64,000 nucleotides of DNA from an uncultured Opitutia bacterium (GTDB lineage: Bacteria; Verrucomicrobiota; Verrucomicrobiia; Opitutales; Opitutaceae). A program made the position numbers and the translations under genes. Under the pieces are notes generated by a model, which saw nothing but the letters and a program-made list of their open reading frames with translations, was not told the origin of the DNA and made no database searches. This document shows positions 4,170 to 61,518 of this stretch, in pieces. The DNA is taken from NCBI GenBank assembly GCA_903859715.1, contig CAIONS010000009.1, forward strand, positions 62,001 through 126,000. The letters are read 5' to 3'. Numbering within the stretch: the first letter of the stretch is position 1; every line of letters starts with the position of its first letter.

Positions 4170-5918
4170 TCAGCGGTATTCTTCGCCGGTGACGGCGTTG
4201 ATGATCTTGAAGTTCTCGACGTGGTAGTTGAGGTCGGCGCGGAACGCCAACTTCACCCCGAAGAGTTTCTCGACGCGGACCAGCAGCTCGGCGTCCTCGC
4301 TGCGGAGGCGTTCGAGGATGCTCGGGTGGACGAGCACTCGCAGGCTGTACTCCTTGCCATCGTTGCGCAGCTGGAGGCGGCGGGCGATGGAGGAGAGTTT
4401 GCGCTGCAACTCGACCGACATTGTCGTCGCGCTCTTCACGATGCCGCGACCGCGGCAGTACGGACAGTCGGTGTAGAGATTCGACGAGAGCGATTCCTGC
4501 TGGCGCTGACGCGTCATCTGGAGGATGCCGAGGGTCGAGATGGGCAGGATGTGGTTCTTCGCCTTATCCTGGGACATCTCCTCGACCATCTTCTCGTAGA
4601 CGGCGTTGCGGTGGCGGCGCTCCTTCATGTCGATGAAGTCGATGATGAGCAGGCCGCCGAGATTGCGGAGGCGGATCTGGCGCGCGGCCTCGGTGGCGGC
4701 CTCGAGGTTGACGGCGTAGATGACGTTTTTCTCGTCGCCGCCGCGGGACTTGTGGGAGCCGGTGTTGACGTCGATGGAGATGAGGGCCTCGGTCTCGTCG
4801 ATGACGATTTCGCCGCCGGACGGCAGCGGGACCTTGCGGAGGCCGGTCTGCTCGATCTGGCGCTCGATGTTGAAGCGCTCAAAGATCGGGATGCTGTCGT
4901 TGTAGTAGGCGATCTTGCCGGCGGAGCGCTTGGAGATCTGGGCGACGAGCTTCTGCGTGTGAAGGTGGTCCTCCTTGTTGTCGATGAGGACGCGGTCGAC
5001 CTCCTCGGTGAGGAAATCGCGGACGGTGCGCTCGACGAGATCGGGCTCCTGGTAGAGACAGGCGGGCGCGCGGTCGTTCTGCATCTTCGTAGTGATGTCC
5101 TGCCAGGTCTTCAGGAGGATGTGCAGGTCACGGACGAAGTAGCGGGATTTCTTGCCCTCGCCGGCGGTGCGGACGATGACGCCCATGCCCTCGGGAATGG
5201 TGAGCTCGTTGATGAGGGTCTTGAGGCGCTTGCGCTCCTGGGGATCCTCGATCTTGCGGGAGATGCCGCAGCCGTCGCTGAACGGGGTGAGGATGAGGTA
5301 GCGGCCGGGGATCGAAAGATTCGTCGTGGTGCGCGGGCCCTTGGTGCCGATGGGGCCCTTGGTGACCTGGATGACGATGTCGGTGCCGGGCGGATAGAGG
5401 CTGGGGATGTCCTTGACGGTGGGCTCGACACCGCGGGCGGGGGCGTTCTTCTTTTTGTTCACGCGCACGACCTCGACGGAGGAGTCGGCGGCGGCGGGGA
5501 GCATGTCCCAGTAGTGAAGGAAGGCGTTCTTGGTATAGCCGATGTCGACGAAGGCGGCCTTGAGGCCGGGGTCGAGGTTCTTGATGCGGCCCTTGTAGAT
5601 ACCGCCGACCATGCGGTTGTCGGATTCGCGCTCGATCTCGAATTTCTCGAGGCGGCCGTCGACGAGGAGCGCGACGCGCTTCTCGAGGGGCTCGGAGTTG
5701 ATGATGAGCTCGCGGTACGAGCCCTTCTCCTTCTTGAAGACCGCGAGGATCTTCTGGAGCAGCGGGCGCTGCTGGGAACGCTCGGCGGCGCCCGCCTTCA
5801 GTTCGGCGGCGCTGACGGGCTTGGTATCGGCGGCAGCCGGGGGATTGACGAGCTCGGCGTCATATTTTTGGGCGACGTCCGGCGGGGTGCCGGGCGAGGG
5901 TTGCGATGAATCGCTCAT
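4170..5918 (-). CDS. rng: Ribonuclease E/G family endoribonuclease
   Basis: 582 residues. An N-terminal low-complexity stretch of about 60 residues precedes the RNase G/E core. The S1-like region has [24 protein letters not shown]. The catalytic DNase I-like part has [14 protein letters not shown], then [12 protein letters not shown], supplying the two Mg-binding aspartates. Near the C-terminus CPYCRGRG provides the cysteines of the Zn-link used for dimerisation. Length and the lack of a long disordered tail favour RNase G over RNase E. Expected roles are 5'-end-dependent RNA decay and rRNA maturation. It follows rodA on the same strand, a neighbourhood common in bacteria, and ends at a strong terminator. 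Confidence 0.95.
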
Positions 5919-6014
5919 GGTGGGTGTCGGGTTGGGTTGTCACGGGGCCCCCGGGTGCGTCCGTTGCGGCGCAGGAAATTCCGGCAGAGCGGTCGATAGC
6001 GCGAAGAAGCGATT

Positions 6015-7265
6015 TCATATGAAATCCTTCCTGAAGCGATAGACGCTCTGGACCAGTCCTTGCAGCAAGCAGCAACTGAGCACAAAGGAGCCACCGTAGC
6101 TGATGAAGGGAAGTGGTATGCCCGTGATGGGCACGAGCCCGATGGTCATGGCGATGTTCACGAACACATGCACCACGAACAGCACCGTGACGCCGATGGC
6201 GAGCAGGGTGCCGAACCGGTCCCGGGCGAGACCCGCGATGCGAATGCCGTTGAACAAAACCAGACCAAACAGGCCGAGAACCGTGAGGCTTCCCAGAAAT
6301 CCTTTTTCCTCGGCGATGACCGAGAAGATAAAATCGTTGTGCGCGACGGAACGGGGCAGGTAGCCGAGCTGGGCCTGCGTGCCCTCGGTCCAGCCCTTGC
6401 CGGTGAGGCCGCCGGAACCGACCGAGATGAGCGACTGGGTCCGGTTCCAGCCCACGCCCATGGGGTCGACTTCCTCGGGCCAGACGAAGCCGACGATGCG
6501 GTTGCGCTGATAGTCGTGCAAGGGCACCCAAGACTGCTGGTCGTATTTGCCCTGATCCCGCAGGAAGGAATACCCATGCTCCTTCATGAAGCTCCGATAG
6601 CTGGCCGTATCCCACGCCACGATGCCCAGAATGAGCAAAAATGCCCCCAAGGCCGCCGCGAAAAACCGCGTCGAGAGCTTTGAGACATAGAGCATGGAAA
6701 AGACCATCGGAGGGAGCACGATCGCCGACTTCAAGTCGGGTTGTTTCATGATCAAGAGCATGGGTATACCCACGGCAAGGGCCAATTTCCCGAGGACGCC
6801 CAGGGACTGGCGGACGGTGCCGATTTCCGAGCGGATGAGGAGACTGGCGGTCATCAGGAGGACGGCGATCTTGGCCGTCTCCGAGGGCTGATAGGTCCCG
6901 AGCGGCCCCAGCGGGATCCAGCGGCTGGCGCCCCACGCTTCCGCGGCAGAGCCGCCGACGCCGGGAATCAGCACGATCACGAGGGGAATCAGGCACAGCG
7001 CATAGAACCAGTGCGTCACGCTCAGCCAGAACCGGTAGTCGACGAGCGATACGCCCACATAGACGCCGGTGCCGAGTCCCAGATAAATGAGCTGCTTGAT
7101 CCAGTAGGCCACACCCACCTCATGCACCGAGAACTGCGCGCTGTAGATGAACGCGATGCCAAACAGGCTCAGGCCGGCCAGGGCCAGCGGCGTCAGCAGG
7201 TCCCAGCGACCGCGCGTCGTCGTCTTGAAGACGCTGATGTAGTCGGTGGGCGAGGGAAGATTCAC
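6015..7265 (-). CDS. rodA: Rod shape-determining protein RodA (SEDS glycosyltransferase)
   Basis: 416 residues with about ten hydrophobic helices. SEDS signatures are clear: YQPSETAKIAVLL, the large extracellular loop around DYQRNRIVGFVWPEEVDPMG, and the C-terminal GIPLPFISYGGS. RodA polymerises lipid II into glycan strands for lateral wall growth with a class B penicillin-binding protein, so this organism probably elongates as a rod. The start is GTG at 7265, overlapping the stop of the upstream ligase gene as GTGA. The rodA stop lies inside a 16-bp palindrome (GATTTCATATGAAATC), likely coincidental. Confidence 0.93.
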   Translation of the reverse strand: MNLPSPTDYISVFKTTTRGRWDLLTPLALAGLSLFGIAFIYSAQFSVHEVGVAYWIKQLIYLGLGTGVYVGVSLVDYRFWLSVTHWFYALCLIPLVIVLIPGVGGSAAEAWGASRWIPLGPLGTYQPSETAKIAVLLMTASLLIRSEIGTVRQSLGVLGKLALAVGIPMLLIMKQPDLKSAIVLPPMVFSMLYVSKLSTRFFAAALGAFLLILGIVAWDTASYRSFMKEHGYSFLRDQGKYDQQSWVPLHDYQRNRIVGFVWPEEVDPMGVGWNRTQSLISVGSGGLTGKGWTEGTQAQLGYLPRSVAHNDFIFSVIAEEKGFLGSLTVLGLFGLVLFNGIRIAGLARDRFGTLLAIGVTVLFVVHVFVNIAMTIGLVPITGIPLPFISYGGSFVLSCCLLQGLVQSVYRFRKDFI

Positions 7266-8764
7266 GGCGAGGCCGCGACTTCATCCGCCGGTTCGGCCAG
7301 GTGCAAGTCCGCAGGCGCGGACAACGCGGCATCGCCGGCGATTTCCGGCCCTTCCTCCGCGACGCTGCCCGCATTGGCCAGGCCGAGCACGGTCCAGAAA
7401 ACCACGGCGCCCATGGGGCCCTCGAGGACGATGCCAAAGCAGCCGCTGATCCAGAGCACCCAAGCTACGCTGATCAGGCCCAGGTTGTCCAAATGGCCCT
7501 GACGGAAAATCCGGCGCGTCAAAGCGGCCATGCCGGCAGTCACGGTGAGCCAGAGCAGCAGGCCCAGCAGCCCCATGCGGCCGAGCACGGATACGATCAT
7601 GCTATGCGGGCTGCGCGCCGAGAAATCGTCATCGGCCACCAGGCCATAATCCGCCAGGAACCGGGCTGCCATGTCATGGCCGAAGCCGAGCCCAAAGAGG
7701 GGATTGTCCGCGAGGGTTTCATCGATGACGGCATTCCACCAGACCACCCGGAAACGGTTGTTGTCGCCGGGATCGCCGCTCTCGTGGTTGGTGTAGGTGC
7801 CGGTGCCCTGGATATCGGCGATCGAGACCACATGCTCGTAAGTCGAGTAGGCGGCGGTTTCCCGGAGGTTCTTGTTGCCGAGGACGAAAATGAAAACCGC
7901 CACGGTCACCGCGGCACCGACGATGGCGACCTGCGCGGCGGCAATGCGCCACCGCCGGGCGATCAGCCACATCAGGGTCACGACCGCGAGGGCCACGATG
8001 GCGGCGCGGGGTGACGCCGCGGTGCTGGGCAGGAGCAGGCATGCCGCCGCGGGGATGAGCCACCAAGCATGGCGGCTGGTTTCCCAGCGGGTCCACAGCC
8101 AGAAAAACCCGGCCATGAGCAGGGCGGCCAGAAGATCGCTCTTGTAGAAGATCAGCGGTATGTTGCGGAAGGTCAGGTGGAGAAAGAAATCCGGGGCCGC
8201 ATAATCCACGATGGCAACCACCGGCAGGACGAGGAAGGCGGCCGCGAGCGTTCGCCGCAGCAGGCGGACGGAGGCGGGATGCCCGGCGTAGGCCTGCGCG
8301 ATGAAGAAAAATGCGGCATAGTAAACCATCGCAAAATCGCGCAGCGCGAGAAAGCCATGGGCGCGAAGATCAGCGGGCAGCCGGAACGCGCCGACGAGAA
8401 CCCAGGCCAGCAGGCTCAGGTTCAGCCAGTCCCGCCGCACTGCCACGAGCTGTTTGCGGCCGAGCCGGAGCACGAGGGCGGGGGTCGCCACCAGCAAGGT
8501 GGCCTCCGCAGGCAGCAAAGGCAGATCGGAAGTCACGCTGAGCTGGGCAAAACCCCGGTTGCCGACGATGTAGCCGAACAGCACCGCAGCCAGCACCCAG
8601 ACCTCAGGCAAGGGTCCGCGGGACCATTCAATCATCGCCCAGACGAGTACGCCCACCACCACCACGCTGAGCAGAAGGTGCTCGTTGGCGATGCCGGCAC
8701 CCATGATGATCGCGGCGAGCGCCCCGACCAAAACGATGAACAGGACGCGAAAGGAGGGGTTCAT
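7262..8764 (-). CDS. O-antigen ligase / Wzy-type polymerase family membrane protein
   Basis: 500 residues from the ATG at 8764. It has about a dozen predicted transmembrane helices and the Wzy_C pattern: a periplasmic loop with NNRFRVVWWNAVIDETLADNPLFGLGFG, then SPHSMIVSVLGRMGL. This family includes WaaL ligases and Wzy polymerases, which cannot be separated by eye. It acts in the inner membrane on lipid-linked surface glycan. It lies 4 bp after a GT9 glycosyltransferase and is coupled to rodA by a 4-bp overlap. The C-terminal tail of about 35 residues is acidic and probably cytoplasmic. Confidence 0.85.
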   Translation of the reverse strand: MNPSFRVLFIVLVGALAAIIMGAGIANEHLLLSVVVVGVLVWAMIEWSRGPLPEVWVLAAVLFGYIVGNRGFAQLSVTSDLPLLPAEATLLVATPALVLRLGRKQLVAVRRDWLNLSLLAWVLVGAFRLPADLRAHGFLALRDFAMVYYAAFFFIAQAYAGHPASVRLLRRTLAAAFLVLPVVAIVDYAAPDFFLHLTFRNIPLIFYKSDLLAALLMAGFFWLWTRWETSRHAWWLIPAAACLLLPSTAASPRAAIVALAVVTLMWLIARRWRIAAAQVAIVGAAVTVAVFIFVLGNKNLRETAAYSTYEHVVSIADIQGTGTYTNHESGDPGDNNRFRVVWWNAVIDETLADNPLFGLGFGHDMAARFLADYGLVADDDFSARSPHSMIVSVLGRMGLLGLLLWLTVTAGMAALTRRIFRQGHLDNLGLISVAWVLWISGCFGIVLEGPMGAVVFWTVLGLANAGSVAEEGPEIAGDAALSAPADLHLAEPADEVAASP

Positions 8765-8768
8765 GAAC

Positions 8769-9797
8769 TTAACGATTTCCGGCTCCGTCCGCGAGCGACA
8801 CCAGGCAGGCCGATTCAATGGCCTCGACGGACCAGCGTCGCATGCAGGCCATGGGCTCGGCGGCATTGATGCAGCGGCCGGGTGAGAACGGGCCCTCCTC
8901 GCAGGGCAGGCAGGCGAGGCCGGGCGTCCGTAGCACCTGGACCTGCGCGCGATGCCAGGCCGGATCCCAGGCCCACGCCGAGGGCCCGCTGATGATGACA
9001 CTTGGCGTACCAAGAGCCGAGGCGAGGTGCATGGGACCGGAATTGTTGCCGACGAACAATTGGGCACAAGCCAGCTGCGCGGTCAGCTCGCCCAAGGTGC
9101 GCGTTTCGCATCGTGTCACCCTGGAGGAAAGGCTGGCGCCGCGGGTTTCGGGAGTGTCGATCCAGATTACCTCGAATCGAGGCGACAGCTGCGTGGCGAG
9201 CCGGGCGAAGGAATCTAGGGACCAGCGGGTGTGGATCTGCTTTGATCCAGCATGGATCAGCACCCGCCCGGCCTGCCGCGGGCTGGCAGGGCTGAGATGG
9301 TTGAGGTTGGGGACGGGTGGCGTTGCCGCCCAGTTGTTCGTTTGGTCAAGGGCCGACACGAGAGCCCGCGCGGTCTCCCAATTCCATTGGGCCATGCTCC
9401 ATCCGGGCGCCAGGGCCACCTCGTGCGTCAGGGTGTGGTGCAGGCGGATTCTCAGGCCCGCGGCTCCAACCCGGATCGGGCCGCCGGCCAGGCGCGCCAG
9501 CGCATGAGCCACGCTGCCTTGGTCGTAGCTGACCAACGAAGCGTCGAAGCGACGTCCGGTGAACCGGGCGGCCCATGACATGAGTTCCCACGGACGCTGC
9601 CACGCGTTCTTAAACGCCTCCGGCGTGCTGGTCAGCAGATCTTCGCGGGCGATGTCCGCCTCGTACAACGCTGCGACATGGGGTGCGGTTACTACGGTCA
9701 GCCGCCATTGCGGATACTGGCGGCGCAATGCCTGCACCACCGGCAGGAACACGACGTTGTCGCCGAGGTGGTTGACCTTGAGAATCAGCAGATGCAT
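8769..9797 (-). CDS. Glycosyltransferase family 9 (heptosyltransferase-like)
   Basis: 342 residues from the ATG at 9797 (MHLLILKVNHLGDNVVFLP). The GT-B fold signatures are present: the N-terminal LGDNVVFLPVVQALRRQYP motif, HAGSKQIHTRWSLDSFARL at the domain junction, and LFVGNNSGPMHLASALGTPSV for the nucleotide-sugar site. A Cys-rich stretch near the C-terminus (CLPCEEGPF...C...C) matches the cluster seen in many bacterial heptosyltransferases. It probably adds a sugar to lipopolysaccharide core or a similar glycan. The start is 13 bp after the stop of the methyltransferase fragment and the end is 4 bp before the O-antigen ligase gene. Confidence 0.88.
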   Translation of the reverse strand: MHLLILKVNHLGDNVVFLPVVQALRRQYPQWRLTVVTAPHVAALYEADIAREDLLTSTPEAFKNAWQRPWELMSWAARFTGRRFDASLVSYDQGSVAHALARLAGGPIRVGAAGLRIRLHHTLTHEVALAPGWSMAQWNWETARALVSALDQTNNWAATPPVPNLNHLSPASPRQAGRVLIHAGSKQIHTRWSLDSFARLATQLSPRFEVIWIDTPETRGASLSSRVTRCETRTLGELTAQLACAQLFVGNNSGPMHLASALGTPSVIISGPSAWAWDPAWHRAQVQVLRTPGLACLPCEEGPFSPGRCINAAEPMACMRRWSVEAIESACLVSLADGAGNR

Positions 9798-9810
9798 TGC
9801 GGGCCCGGCG

Positions 9811-10227
9811 TCAGAGTTTCGTAACCACGGCTTGGGTGAACCACAGGGGAACGACGGTCTCGGGCTTATCGGCAAAGAACTCGTCGAACGCGCGTTTGAC
9901 GCCCGGGACAGTCGTGTCGCCGTAGTCATGGGTGATGATCAGGCCGCCGCGCACCATACGCGGATAAAACCACTCCAGTGCGCTCCGCGTGGAGGCGAGC
10001 AGATCCACGTCGAGATGAACGAACTTGAAGCGCAGGGCCATGTCCTGCTCCAGCGGCTTGGCTGACTCCGGGAAGAACCCGGAATGAAAATGCACGGCGG
10101 GAAACCCCGCCAGATAGGCCCGGACCTGTTCGACGCTCGTGTCGCCCGACTCGCCCTCGTAAAAGGCGCCATCAGTCAGCGGATCGACGGGAGGCATGCC
10201 GGCGAATGTGTCGAAGAGGAGCAGGTC
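9811..10227 (-). pseudogene. TylF/macrocin O-methyltransferase family, C-terminal part (split by inversion)
   Basis: 138 residues of a class I SAM-dependent methyltransferase: DLLLFDTFAGMPPVD, then KFVHLDVDLLASTRSALEWFYPRM and GGLIITHDYGDTTVPGVKRAFDEFF. These are the middle and end of TylF-like proteins, including the metal-binding HDYGD. The SAM-binding N-terminus is missing. It lies on the opposite strand at 11434-11721. The frame stays open to an ATG at 10242, but those first codons come from antisense flippase sequence and are not native. Joining the two halves across the GGCC at 10228-10231 gives a 234-residue protein of normal length. Confidence 0.85.
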
Positions 10228-10231
10228 GGCC

Positions 10232-11431
10232 ATGGCGCTCACGGCGCTCGTCGGCCTCTCGCAGTTCGCCGATCTCGGAGTTGCGATGGCGCTGCAGCAA
10301 AAACTCTCTGAAGCCTGGGCCCGCGGCGACCAAGCCGGACTGCGCAGAACCTATGCCAGCGGTCAGCGCCTCCTGCTTGGCCTTGGCTTGGGGTGGCTTG
10401 TCGTCCTGGCTCCCGCAGCGTGGTGGCTTGGCCGCCACGCGCTCACTGCCCCGCAGGGTGCCGGCGAACTCCTGTCCCCACTCTCATGGCTGATCGTCGC
10501 TATCGCCGTCGCCGCGGGAATACCGCTTTCAGCTGGGCCACGACTGGCGGCGGCAATCCAACTCGGCTGGATTCATGCCGGCTGGACCGCGGTCGCCAAT
10601 CTGGGGACGCTCCTCGCCGTCTGGGCCTTGGCCCGGACGGGCAACACGGGGACCGTGACGATAATTTCATTGCTGTGCGCCAGCCAGGTCATCCCCGGTT
10701 GGATCACGGCCTTCTCTCTTTCACGGCGACTCCGCTGGCAGGGTCATGCCCGTGCCGAGACAGCCTCGGTTTGGCAACTATGGCATGCGGGCCGGAAATT
10801 CGCGGCGCCCAACCTTGCCGGTGCCCTTCTCACGGCCGCCGCCCCTGCGGCGGTCGCGCGTTTTGGCGGCTATGCCGCCAGTGCCGCCTTCACGGCTCTT
10901 CAACGGCTTTTCGGCACCGCCCAGCAGGCGCATGCCATGGTCTTGGCCCCCCTGTGGCCCGCCTGGGCCGAGGCGGCGGGCCATGGCGAAGCGGCCTGGG
11001 TCAGGCACTCACTGCGGCTTGCGCTCGGCTTCACCGCGATGGTCTGTATTGCCCTTGGGGTCGCGGCGGCGGCCTGGCCTGGCATCATCCATCTCTGGCT
11101 CGGGGCCGGCGCCCCCGTGCCTCCGGCAACCTATGCCTGGCTCATGGCTGTTTGGATCAGCGCCACCATGTTTGGCCAGACCTTGAGCTATTTTCTGCTG
11201 AGCCTCGGCCGGCTCGAGCGCATCACCCTCCATGTGGCGGCAGCCCACGTGCTCACTTTGGCGGGCGTCGGTTTGCTCGGATTTTTCATCGGCGGCACCG
11301 GGGTCGTGACGGCCCTCGCCGCTGGCGCCGCGCTGGGGACCTTGCCCCTGTTTGTGAGCGAAAGCGCGACGGCTTGGCGCGAATTGCCCCGGAAGAATTC
11401 GACGGACGACACGTCCGTGGTCATGTCTTGA
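10232..11431 (+). pseudogene. Polysaccharide flippase (Wzx/MATE-like), body without N-terminus
   Basis: 399 residues with about eleven hydrophobic helices, starting ALTALVGLSQFADLGVAMALQQKL. That is the segment that normally follows the first helix in Wzx/polysaccharide biosynthesis proteins. GLSQFADLGVA is a recognisable family motif after helix 1. The first roughly 60 residues are missing here and lie on the minus strand at 11718-11900. The rebuilt protein is 460 residues, normal for a lipid-linked oligosaccharide flippase. The stop is 2 bp before the ATG of the TylF N-terminal half, so the two genes were adjacent in one operon. Translation could begin at the in-frame ATG at 10232, but helix 1 would be absent. 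Confidence 0.85.
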
Positions 11432-11433
11432 AC

Positions 11434-11721
11434 ATGCTCGACCGGGTCCGCCTTCATTTCATCGCGTGGCTGCTGGAGCGGTATCCGCAGGCGTATTTCC
11501 GCTGGAAGAAGATTGGCAAGCACCGTCTCTGTACAGACCGTGACTTCCTTGCCCTGCATGCACAAAGCCTGCGTGATGGGGAAGGACTGCAAGTCTTGGA
11601 GGAGCGATACAACCTCTGGGTGCTCACCCGCAGCGTGGCCCGGTTGCCCGGAGTCTTGGCAGAGGTGGGCGTTTATCGTGGCGGCAGCGCCAGGCTGATT
11701 GCCGCAGCCAAGGGCGGGGCC
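11434..11721 (+). pseudogene. TylF/macrocin O-methyltransferase family, N-terminal part (split by inversion)
   Basis: 96 residues, MLDRVRLHFIAWLLERYP through LTRSVARLPGVLAEVGVYRGGSARLIAAAKGGA. The EVGVYRGGSARL segment is the SAM-binding motif I of TylF-type methyltransferases. After GCC at 11719-11721 the homology stops and the frame runs into antisense flippase sequence until a stop at about 11850. The remainder of the gene is at 9811-10227 on the other strand. The intact enzyme would methylate a sugar hydroxyl, consistent with decoration of surface polysaccharide. Confidence 0.85.
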
Positions 11722-11900
11722 CAGCCAAAAGTCTCTGTGCCAAGCACCCGGAGTAATAACGGAACCAGCGCGAGCTGGCACAACCCCGACACCACCCGCG
11801 CCGCCGCCAGCGCCCCGGCATTCTGCCCCACGCGGCGCCAGCGCCGGTGAGCGCCATGGGTGGCGTGAGTTACTGAGGTTGGAGGTGCGGCGTTGCTCAT
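11718..11900 (-). pseudogene. Polysaccharide flippase, N-terminal 61 residues (split by inversion)
   Basis: The ATG at 11900 opens MSNAAPPTSVTHATHG, then RVGQNAGALAAARVVSGL and LALVPLLLRVLGTETFGW. This is the first cytoplasmic stretch and helix 1 of a Wzx-like flippase, with the typical LLxRVLGxExFGxWAL signature cut after GW. Beyond 11718 the frame continues in antisense of the methyltransferase and has no homology. The start is 94 bp downstream of the GT9 stop at 11995. Confidence 0.8.
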
Positions 11901-11994
11901 GGAATACTGGCGGGTATTGCTGCGCGGACTGGCCATGGTGGCCAGCCTTTCATGCGTGCCATCGTCCACCGGGAAAGTTTGCGCCCGGTTGGAC

Positions 11995-12936
11995 TCAATG
12001 GGCGCTGAGCCACGACTGGACGCGGGACCAGACCTCATCGGTCGAAAGATCCAGCAGGCAGTTAGGTGTGGGGAAGCGGCAGGCGTCGAAGCAGGGCTTG
12101 TAGGGGCAAGGCGCGCCCTCGATCCAAGCGGCTTGCGGATGTTGCGGAGCGAACAGTTCAGGGAGCTGCGGGCCGAAAATCGTGAAGGTCGGCACGCCGA
12201 GCAGAGCGGCGAGATGGCCGGGGCCGGAGTCGTTGCCGATGAAACGGCCGGCTGTGGCCAGGATATCGAGCAGCTGGCCGAGATCGCGCAGGGAGTCGTC
12301 GAGCATCACGACTTCCCAGCCGACGGCGCGGAGCCGGCGAGCAACTTCATTGAACCGTTCGACGGGCCACTTGCGGACGGGATGGCCCGCCCCGGTGTGA
12401 ATCACGAGGCGGCGGACGGCAGAGGCGGAAGGCGAGATGCGAGTGGCGAGTGGGGGCAGATCCCAGCTGAGGGTGGAGGCCAGGGCGCGCCAGTGGTCGG
12501 CGCGATGCGGCCGCACTGGATGTGGCAAGGACTGCGTCAGCAAAAGGCGTGAGCCCGCGCGGGGAAATCCGAGCCGGCGGCGGGCTCCGGCGAGGGTCAG
12601 CAGTAAGTGATCGCGGGGATCCGGTCGCACGGAAAGGCCGAGATCGAACTGCCGGGCGCGCAGTTCCGACCGTACGCGGGCCAGTTCGCGCCAAGGCCAG
12701 CGGTGCAGGCGGTATTTTCCGGAGAACGCGGTCCACGGTGCGGTCAGCGACACCAGTTCGACCGCGGGAGCAAAGCGAGCGAGCAGCGGTGCGGCGTGGG
12801 GTTTGGCCAGCAGGGTGACTGTGGCGTGTTGCGTGGCGGTCTGCAGGAACGGCAGGGCCAGGGCCAGATCGCCGAGGCCCCACAGCTCGGTCACGAGCAG
12901 GCGCGGCGGCAGGGAGGCGTGCGAAGGTTTTGCCAA
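11995..12936 (-). CDS. Glycosyltransferase family 9 (heptosyltransferase-like)
   Basis: 313 residues. It has LLVTELWGLGDLALALPFLQ at the N-terminus, HTGAGHPVRKWPVERFNEVA in the middle and RFIGNDSGPGHLAALLGVPTF near the C-terminus, the standard GT9 pattern. As in the paralogue at 8769-9797, the C-terminus has a Cys-rich stretch (CPYKPCFDACRF...NC). It is the first gene of the minus-strand glycan operon and starts only 24 bp from the divergent exosortase gene, so the two promoters must overlap each other or the coding ends. It probably builds lipopolysaccharide core or another surface glycan. Confidence 0.87.
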   Translation of the reverse strand: MAKPSHASLPPRLLVTELWGLGDLALALPFLQTATQHATVTLLAKPHAAPLLARFAPAVELVSLTAPWTAFSGKYRLHRWPWRELARVRSELRARQFDLGLSVRPDPRDHLLLTLAGARRRLGFPRAGSRLLLTQSLPHPVRPHRADHWRALASTLSWDLPPLATRISPSASAVRRLVIHTGAGHPVRKWPVERFNEVARRLRAVGWEVVMLDDSLRDLGQLLDILATAGRFIGNDSGPGHLAALLGVPTFTIFGPQLPELFAPQHPQAAWIEGAPCPYKPCFDACRFPTPNCLLDLSTDEVWSRVQSWLSAH

Positions 12937-17857: not shown

Positions 17858-17933
17858 ACCACGAAATACACGAAACACACTAAAAATTCTCCGAGGTGGT
17901 TCTGGATTTCGTGTCGTTCGTGTATTTCGTGGT
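17858..17933. repeat. Inverted repeat in divergent intergenic region
   Basis: Two perfect 17-bp arms, ACCACGAAATACACGAA at 17858-17874 and its reverse complement at 17917-17933, separated by 42 bp. The right arm ends 5 bp before the exonuclease ATG. Similar CGAA-rich inverted repeats occur at 54349-54434 and 58521-58588. Confidence 0.85.
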
Positions 17934-17938
17934 GACCA

Positions 17939-18604
17939 ATGTCCTGGGTCGATCAGTCCATTTACTTCGTCGATTTCGAAGGCAGTCGCACGTCTGGCAT
18001 TCTGGAGTATGGCGTGGTGGAGGTCTTGGGCGGGAAAATCATCGAGACGAACACCCGGCTGTGCCGGGCGATCGGCCGGGTGCGGGCGGAGGATATCGCC
18101 GTGCATGGACTGGAGGAAAAGGCCTTGGCCGGGCACGCGCCGTTTGCGGATGAATGGGACTATTTTGCGGGCCTGCGTGAGCGCGGTCCGCTGGCGGCAC
18201 ATTATGCCGGCGTGGAAAACGGGCTGCTCAAGTCGGTGTGGCCCTACCCGCGGAACTCGCCGGATTTCGCCCGGCCGGGTGAAAGCGTGATCGAGTGGGG
18301 ACCATGGATCGACTCGGCCCGGCTCTACGCGCAGTTTTATCCGCAGCTCGATTCCGGGAGGCTGGAGTCACTTGTGAGCATGTGCGGCCTGCAGGCGGAG
18401 CTCGATGGGCTGGCGCAGGCGCATTGTCCGCCGGAGCGCCGCTGCTACCACGCGGCACTGTACGATGCGCTGGCGGGCGCGCTGCTGCTGGCCTCGCTGG
18501 CGCGGGAGCCACGGCTGGCGGAGCTGACGGTGATGCAGCTGCTCGCGTTCAGCACGCTCGACGGGGAAAAGCGCGACGCGCTGCAGCAGCGGAACCTGTT
18601 TTGA
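17939..18604 (+). CDS. DnaQ-like 3'-5' exonuclease (DEDD superfamily)
   Basis: 221 residues. The ExoI motif is YFVDFEGS (Asp and Glu metal ligands) at residues 9-16. The ExoIII motif is CYHAALYDALAGALLLA, with the His and Asp of the DEDDh class. A middle segment with HYAGVENGLLKS is the likely ExoII region. It lacks polymerase or helicase domains, so it is a stand-alone exonuclease, possibly acting in repair or RNA trimming. The C-terminal 40 residues (LAELTVMQLLAFSTLDGEKR) fit no motif I know. Confidence 0.8.
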   Translation: MSWVDQSIYFVDFEGSRTSGILEYGVVEVLGGKIIETNTRLCRAIGRVRAEDIAVHGLEEKALAGHAPFADEWDYFAGLRERGPLAAHYAGVENGLLKSVWPYPRNSPDFARPGESVIEWGPWIDSARLYAQFYPQLDSGRLESLVSMCGLQAELDGLAQAHCPPERRCYHAALYDALAGALLLASLAREPRLAELTVMQLLAFSTLDGEKRDALQQRNLF

Positions 18605-18643
18605 TCGCGGGAACGCGGAGGGGCGGAAAAGCAAGGAGATCGA

Positions 18644-18724
18644 GGGTAGGGCGGGACCGCTGGGCCCGCCGTCGGCGCGGTCTGCTCGAAAAACCCGGCG
18701 CGCCCAGCGGTCGCGCCCTACCCC
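18644..18724. repeat. Intergenic inverted repeat with GTAGGGCG ends
   Basis: Arms of about 27 bp, starting GGGTAGGGCGGGACCGCTGG at 18644 and ending with its near-complement at 18697-18723 (about 25 of 27 pairs), around a 26-bp spacer. The CGCCCTAC end is shared with the repeat at 4127 and 25111. Confidence 0.8.
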
Positions 18725-18761
18725 GGAAGCGTGAACGAATTCAGGAATCCGATTCCGTGTC

Positions 18762-25008: not shown

Positions 25009-25110
25009 GGCCAAGCGTTTCGCTGCGAGCGACGTGAGACAAGCGGGGAATCGTGAGAACGGGCCGTGCGGTTCGGCTCATCCGGAGGATTCGCCCTGCG
25101 TTCCAAATCA

Positions 25111-25136
25111 GGCGGGGTCAGCGACCCCGCCCTACA
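25111..25136. repeat. 26-bp intergenic repeat, copy 2
   Basis: Identical over 26 bp to 4127-4152. Its last bases overlap the stop codon of the PTS EIIA gene (TAG at 25132-25134 on the minus strand), so the element may serve as a transcript end. Confidence 0.8.
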
Positions 25137-25602
25137 ATCCGAGCCTAGTCTCTACGGTGGTAATTGCGGTGATGAAGGACTCGGGAGTGGCGGCGGCAAA
25201 AAACGTGGCGCGGTCGGAGGGGTCGCGGAGGATTTTGCAGAGGGCGCTGACGACGGCGAGGTAGTCGCCGGGCTTGGACTTCGGGGTGCCCAGCACGAAG
25301 AAGAGCTTCACGATCTCGCCGTTGGCGTCGAACGGGATGCCGGTGTCGCTGCGGCCGACGGCGAGGACCATTTGTTTCACATGGCCGGTGCGGGCGTGCG
25401 GAAGGGCGACCGCGTTGCCGAGGCAGGTGGTGTCGAGCCGGTCGCGCGCGAGGAGTTCATCGTAAAAAACGGCAAAGTTCGTGATGTCGGGATGCCCGTC
25501 GAGCAGGTGGGCGACCTCCTGGAGGGCCGCGGTGCGTTCGGTCGCCTGCACGTGGAGCGTGACGCGGGCAGGACTGAGGAGAGAGGTGATTTTTCCGGGC
25601 AT
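25132..25602 (-). CDS. PTS EIIA type-2 (fructose/mannitol or PtsN-like) domain protein
   Basis: 156 residues from the ATG at 25602 (MPGKITSLLSPARVTLHVQ). The phosphorylated histidine is in CLGNAVALPHARTGHVKQ, the hallmark of EIIA type 2. VKLFFVLGTPKSKPGDYLAVVSALCKIL is the second conserved block. No EIIB/EIIC permease is nearby, so a regulatory PtsN-type role in a nitrogen-type PTS is more likely than sugar uptake. Stand-alone EIIA proteins of this kind are common in Verrucomicrobiota. Confidence 0.9.
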   Translation of the reverse strand: MPGKITSLLSPARVTLHVQATERTAALQEVAHLLDGHPDITNFAVFYDELLARDRLDTTCLGNAVALPHARTGHVKQMVLAVGRSDTGIPFDANGEIVKLFFVLGTPKSKPGDYLAVVSALCKILRDPSDRATFFAAATPESFITAITTVETRLGL

Positions 25603-61366: not shown

Positions 61367-61518
61367 TCATCCTGAGCGAAGCCGAAGGATCTCTGTTATT
61401 ATTTCTCTCAAGCCACCTTCCAGTCACAGACACTCCCACGGCGACGCTCAAGTGTCCGAACTAAACGCGGAATCACCGGCAAGGATAACAGAGATCCTTC
61501 GGCTTTGCTCAGGATGAC
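61367..61518. repeat. 152-bp element with 34-bp terminal inverted repeats (MITE-like)
   Basis: The left arm 61367-61400 starts GTCATCCTGAGCGAAGCCGA. The right arm 61485-61518 is its reverse complement except at one position (33 of 34). The 84-bp centre has no coding sequence. The TCATCCTGAGCGAAG core is a widespread intergenic repeat in several phyla. Before the left arm CCGTCATGAA is directly repeated. It fills most of the 364-bp gap between the divergent PhyH and DegT genes. Confidence 0.85.

What the first reader, a model, noticed from the sequence alone, without database searches (positions are those of the whole stretch)
10228..11721. 1.5-kb inversion at two GGCC sites splits a flippase and a methyltransferase; re-inversion repairs both in frame
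The flippase N-terminus (minus, 11718-11900) and body (plus, 10232-11431), and the TylF N-terminus (plus, 11434-11721) and C-terminus (minus, 9811-10227), are separated. Inverting 10228-11721 joins all four pieces into two intact proteins (460 and 234 residues) with no lost or added base. It also re-forms one minus-strand operon (GT9, flippase, TylF, GT9, ligase, rodA, rng) with gaps of 2, 13 and 4 bp plus a 4-bp overlap. Such exact restoration by chance is very unlikely. The only shared border sequence is the palindrome GGCC. This could be on/off switching of a surface glycan, a recent rearrangement, or an assembly/library artefact.
Basis: seen in the sequence. Interest (0 to 1): 0.82.

Follow-up and report, generated by a model that had tools for sequence, protein, structure and literature searches.

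The report
Recent private inversion breaking two genes
In this draft bacterial genome a 1.5-kb piece of a sugar-coat gene cluster lies flipped end to end, breaking a probable flippase gene and a methyltransferase gene that close relatives keep whole; it looks like a recent one-off mutation (or an assembly slip) rather than a built-in switch.

Summary
Re-inverting 10228-11721 yields a 460-aa flippase-like protein and a 234-aa TylF-type methyltransferase. Genus relatives carry the re-inverted order; around the segment, the window aligns to two of them in three blocks with strand switches at the stated borders, the re-inverted sequence in one. Among 252 family genomes, 11 of 11 others with a TylF at 50% identity or more keep it whole. 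Some 39.7 kb of the rest of the window, in blocks, is collinear with relative G011. A programmed switch is poorly supported: the border repeat is only GGCC (four or more bases match at 2.3% of random breakpoint pairs); no relative read has GGCC at the aligned bases, though G011 has one 3 bases off at the TylF junction; no hit of two recombinase families lies on the 287-kb contig. The pieces show no decay, so the event is recent, reversible or false. Best reading: a recent illegitimate micro-inversion disabling both genes. Artefact is the main rival, because no reads could be examined. An ordinary kind of mutation, cleanly mapped.

The parts
10228..11721 (.). inverted segment, 1494 bp
   Evidence: strand switch against L117 and L118 at these borders; re-inverted sequence aligns as one block
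10228..10231 (.). GGCC at left border
11718..11721 (.). GGCC at right border
11718..11900 (-). flippase N-terminal part (61 codons)
   Evidence: 63-71% identical to the start of single flippases in G007, G008, G011
10232..11431 (+). flippase body, inverted (399 codons plus stop)
   Evidence: 70-71% identical to the G007 and G008 flippases; no Pfam match alone; the re-joined protein matches Polysacc_synt PF01943 at E 1.5e-5, 25 bits, under the 28.2 cut-off
11434..11721 (+). TylF-type methyltransferase N-terminal part, inverted (96 codons)
   Evidence: 84-86% identical to G007, G008, G001; no Pfam match alone
9811..10227 (-). TylF-type methyltransferase C-terminal part
   Evidence: Pfam TylF PF05711 E 4.5e-12 alone; 63.6 bits when joined; 81-82% identical to G007, G008, G001
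8769..9797 (-). glycosyltransferase family 9 (GT9a)
   Evidence: PF01075
7262..8764 (-). O-antigen ligase family protein (Wzy_C)
   Evidence: PF04932, 46 bits
6015..7265 (-). rodA/ftsW family
   Evidence: PF01098
4170..5918 (-). ribonuclease E/G
   Evidence: PF10150
11995..12936 (-). glycosyltransferase family 9 (GT9b), upstream of the flippase
   Evidence: PF01075; 88% identical in G011

Best explanation
A recent, one-off, base-exact inversion of 1494 bp in the sampled population, arising by illegitimate recombination or end joining that used a 4-bp GGCC match, inside a minus-strand cell-surface glycan operon. It cut a Wzx-like flippase after about residue 61 and a TylF-type methyltransferase after about residue 96 and swapped their ends, so both are probably non-functional in this state, while the neighbouring glycosyltransferase, ligase, rodA and rng genes stay whole. 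Shown: the inversion relative to close relatives, its borders, its absence from the relatives searched, intact frames. Inferred: that the molecule exists in cells (no reads seen), that the proteins are dead, that the event is recent, and the joining mechanism.
For: Flippase pieces adjacent and TylF pieces adjacent in G007, G008 and G011; G001 the same from flippase residue 160 on, where its contig starts. One-block alignment after re-inversion. Pieces on opposite strands only in G000 among the 252 genomes searched for TylF and for the flippase. GGCC not at the aligned four bases in 6 of 6 relatives read at the TylF junction and 5 of 5 at the flippase junction, so no maintained site is seen. 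No decay: dN/dS of TylF 0.12 and flippase 0.19 against G007, beside 0.20 for GT9a and 0.33 for the ligase; private amino-acid changes G000 v G007 with G011 as outgroup 30 v 32 of 446 and 9 v 9 of 234. Both junctions are reciprocal with no base lost, which two independent chimeric joins would hardly give (inference); no N in the window.
Against: No read or second strain was available. The GGCC match is only weakly beyond chance (P 0.023), and a 10-bp inverted repeat between the same two genes was not used. No Ku hit (1 of 14 control genomes rang), so classical end joining is no obvious route; in a Salmonella study the verified inversions implied a repeat of 12 bp or more (passages of PMC3411829). 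G011 has a GGCC shifted 3 bases at the TylF junction. The private-change test averages over the whole branch, synonymous sites are near saturation, and G011 is no uniform outgroup (ligase 17 v 135 of 493; rng 0 v 15 of 200), so it cannot date the event.
Confidence: 0.58

Rival explanations
1. Assembly, library or amplification artefact: the organism has the ancestral order and the draft contig carries a falsely flipped segment.
For: Draft of 71 contigs, 97.81% complete; only this one genome shows it; the pieces show no decay; a 4-bp match is not far from what random joins give.
Against: Both junctions are reciprocal with no base lost or added and there is no N; no inverted repeat longer than 4 bp links the two borders, so a graph tangle at a long repeat is not available (inference); about 39.7 kb of the rest of the window, matched to G011 in blocks, shows no second flip.
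Confidence: 0.29
2. Reversible on/off switch of a surface glycan (inverton-like) that flips two genes at once through GGCC-centred sites.
For: Surface glycan locus; exact reciprocal borders; intact frames on all four pieces; Verrucomicrobiota are said to hold many invertons, and one controls the Akkermansia cps1 capsule locus (passages of PMC13343947); G011 has a GGCC 3 bases from the TylF junction.
Against: 4-bp border repeat only, against 10-40 nt stated for invertons (passage of PMC11892184); GGCC not at the aligned bases in relatives; no flipped state in 11 of 11 genomes with a TylF at 50% identity or more; no hit of the resolvase or tyrosine-recombinase family on contig C9, though a distant enzyme or another family is not excluded.
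Confidence: 0.1
3. Cut-and-rejoin by a GGCC-cutting restriction enzyme or a topoisomerase with a 4-bp stagger, religating the fragment flipped.
For: The shared 4 bp is a palindrome present at both borders. Joining in vivo at restriction sites is recalled from older work on EcoRI; a search for it gave no such paper.
Against: No RE_HaeIII hit in G000 (1 of 14 controls rang); the RE_NgoPII search was silent but so were all its controls; other nuclease families were not searched. The one C5-methylase hit lies on a 3761-bp contig beside a terminase-like frame. GGCC is common, 685 in the window.
Confidence: 0.03

Closest known systems
Spontaneous inversions at short inverted repeats (Salmonella chemostat study, PMC3411829; passages seen)
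   Same: inversions in a bacterial chromosome with short matching inverted sequence at the end points
   Different: here 4 bp, there a cut-off of 12 bp or more deduced from the verified inversions; no population frequency known here
Invertons / phase-variable capsule loci, e.g. Akkermansia cps1 (PMC13343947; passages seen)
   Same: DNA inversion at a surface polysaccharide locus; the window's closest relatives are titled Opitutae or Verrucomicrobia, the phylum of Akkermansia
   Different: Akkermansia has inverted repeats with a motif, sites conserved over the genus, both orientations in reads, and the inverton lies upstream of the locus; here a 4-bp repeat, not conserved, inside two genes, no reads
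Intragenic invertons (Chanin et al. 2024; not held; known only as a reference in PMC13343947 and from recall)
   Same: inversion borders within coding sequence
   Different: two genes cut by one inversion and no border repeat beyond GGCC

Membership tests
Inverton (site-specific phase-variation element) | flanking inverted repeats of about 10-40 nt | tested here: not met
   border match is 4 bp; definition from a PMC11892184 passage
Inverton (site-specific phase-variation element) | cognate invertase, often near | tested here: not met
   the PF00239 hit (1) and PF00589 hits (5, one under the cut-off) in G000 are all on other contigs than C9; nearness only: a distant enzyme or another family is not excluded
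Inverton (site-specific phase-variation element) | both orientations present in one population | not testable with these tools
   no reads; no second strain found in the collections searched
Inverton (site-specific phase-variation element) | inversion sites conserved among relatives (as reported for Akkermansia cps1) | tested here: not met
   no GGCC at the aligned four bases in 6 of 6 relatives (TylF junction) and 5 of 5 (flippase junction); G011 has one shifted by 3 bases at the TylF junction
Illegitimate micro-inversion | reciprocal inversion relative to the order in relatives | tested here: met
Illegitimate micro-inversion | microhomology at the junctions beyond chance | tested here: inconclusive
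   4 bp; P(4 or more) 0.023 over 400,000 random breakpoint pairs
Illegitimate micro-inversion | found in raw reads, not only in the assembly | not testable with these tools
   no reads available
TylF-type methyltransferase (PF05711) | match over the curated cut-off for the re-joined protein | tested here: met
   63.6 bits, cut-off 23
Wzx-like flippase (PF01943) | match over the curated cut-off | tested here: not met
   25 bits, cut-off 28.2, E 1.5e-5 over residues 25-304; the flippase role is inferred from this weak match and the operon

The most novel reading that the evidence does not exclude
A two-gene surface-glycan switch that flips by recombination at bare GGCC palindromes, turning off export (flippase) and methylation (TylF) in one step without the longer inverted repeats of known invertons.
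Probability: 0.06. Interest if true: 0.75.

Novelty: new member of a known kind. Interest (0 to 1): 0.3.

Why it matters
If the flip is real, it is a cleanly mapped loss event in a cell-surface glycan locus of a bacterium whose closest relatives here are uncultured Opitutae, possibly selected by phages or grazers (inference). If it is an artefact, it shows that draft genomes can carry base-exact false inversions that split genes and would be read as gene loss. Either way the pattern (four pieces, two strands, relatives whole) is a simple screen for such events.

Tried and rejected
Switch sites: the longest repeat touching a border is a 13-bp copy of CCATGGCGCTCAC (10230-10242 and, inverted, 11847-11859). 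In the ancestral order it is a direct repeat, so it cannot drive the inversion; a repeat of 13 or more touches 21 of 600 random breakpoints (3.5%), and the exact 13-mer is not seen at these places in the three relatives printed. Rejected as cause.

Inverton motif CGGATT..AATCCG (from PMC13343947): 41 pairs within 3 kb over the window, none at the borders; uninformative.

GGCC-specific restriction: no RE_HaeIII hit (1 of 14 controls rang); RE_NgoPII silent with all controls silent, so not a test. The C5-methylase hit is on a 3761-bp contig with a terminase-like frame, named by reading the translation, no family search. Ku: no hit (1 of 14 controls rang).

Structure prediction was not used, as it would not bear on the question.

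Literature: eight searches. Searches gave nothing of use; 35 and 37 were seen as listings only. Of three papers I saw passages. No claim of absence from print is made.

Full report
Observation. GGCC stands at both borders and is the whole of the shared sequence: the borders can be slid by 4 bases inward and 0 outward.

Relatives. The window is part of contig C9 (287,596 bp) of a draft genome of 3.18 Mb in 71 contigs. A scan of named genomes with the re-joined TylF returned 71 loci; the best two, titled Opitutae and Verrucomicrobia, match at 83% over the full length. In G007, G008 and G011 the flippase pieces are adjacent and the TylF pieces are adjacent, on one strand, flippase before TylF before GT9a; G001 starts inside the flippase at a contig end and is otherwise the same. 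L004 and L005 have a whole TylF in another gene order, with a weakly similar flippase-like match (27-29%) on the opposite strand more than 3 kb away; this is not the window's arrangement. G005 and G009 have a TylF in one piece (57% and 52%) but GT9a between flippase and TylF.

Borders by DNA. Around the segment the present window aligns to G007 in three blocks: 4170-10230 minus, 10228-11721 plus, 11720-11846 minus; and to G008 as 4170-10230, 10228-11714 and 11720-11869 with the same switch of strand. The re-inverted sequence aligns as one block to each. At the four bases aligned to GGCC none of 6 relatives (TylF junction) and none of 5 (flippase junction; two of them only about 33% identical) has GGCC. 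Against a clean picture, G011 has GGCC 3 bases off at the TylF junction, and most others have a copy 11-21 bases away.

Private to this genome. In 252 family genomes, 78 have a TylF match including G000. Eleven others have one at 50% identity or more, and 11 of 11 cover at least residues 4-231 in one open stretch; only G000 has the query in two pieces on opposite strands of one contig. The weaker matches, several of them partial and some genomes with two or three, were not judged for wholeness. For the flippase, 32 of 252 genomes match at E 1e-20 including G000, with at most 6 candidates scored per genome; only G000 has pieces on opposite strands of one contig. Results that differ from one whole gene: G227 and G181 each have one in-frame TGA, G073 has two matches on one strand, G174 two on different contigs, G001 is cut by a contig end, G228 is partial. 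Against G011, blocks of 120 bp or more between 5.3 and 56 kb cover 39,659 bases outside the segment, all on one strand per contig and in order; 34.9-41.0 kb has no such block. The two short G011 blocks inside the segment (10231-10362 and 10811-10974) lie on the other strand, as expected.

Age. The pieces show purifying dN/dS and as many private amino-acid changes as the G007 lineage. Synonymous sites are near saturation (pS 0.53-0.70 for G000 against the three relatives in these two genes), so this says only that any loss is recent on that branch, or that the state is reversible or false.

Mechanism. Four or more matching bases occur at 2.3% of random breakpoint pairs in the two genes, weak evidence for microhomology. 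No Ku hit, no HaeIII-type nuclease hit; the NgoPII type was in effect untested. One resolvase-family and five tyrosine-recombinase-family hits all lie on other contigs. The repeat length and site conservation expected of an inverton are not met.

Function. The TylF match is firm when the protein is joined (63.6 bits, cut-off 23); the flippase match to Polysacc_synt is under its curated cut-off (25 against 28.2 bits), so 'flippase' rests on a weak match plus the operon with two GT9 genes and an O-antigen ligase family protein. Loss of both activities in the present state is inferred from the truncation.

Verdict. Observation confirmed; the likely cause is a recent illegitimate micro-inversion (0.58), with artefact (0.29) unresolved and switching unlikely (0.10).

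Noticed in passing
window about 8630-12000: Against G011 the GT9a-TylF-flippase block is strongly diverged (pS 0.60-0.70) while the flanks are close (ligase pS 0.31; 87-90% DNA identity on the two sides), which suggests exchange of a three-gene cassette in the glycan locus. The inverted segment lies inside it.
   Followed up: partly
window 10230-10242 and 11847-11859: 13-bp exact repeat CCATGGCGCTCAC, direct in the ancestral order and inverted now, one copy at the left border; not clearly beyond chance (21 of 600 random breakpoints).
   Followed up: yes
window about 18600-18730 and 25060-25150: Short stretches with many dispersed matches in G011, G007 and G008, as interspersed repeats would give.
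   Followed up: no
window 61379-61505 and 17858-17933: Perfect inverted repeats with arms of 21 and 17 bp, the longest of 41 found at 12 bp or more with 50-3000 bp between the arms.
   Followed up: no
L154 (G000:C2, 3761 bp): Small contig with a C5 cytosine methylase hit (PF00145) beside a frame that reads like a phage terminase; likely phage DNA in the draft (terminase named by reading).
   Followed up: no
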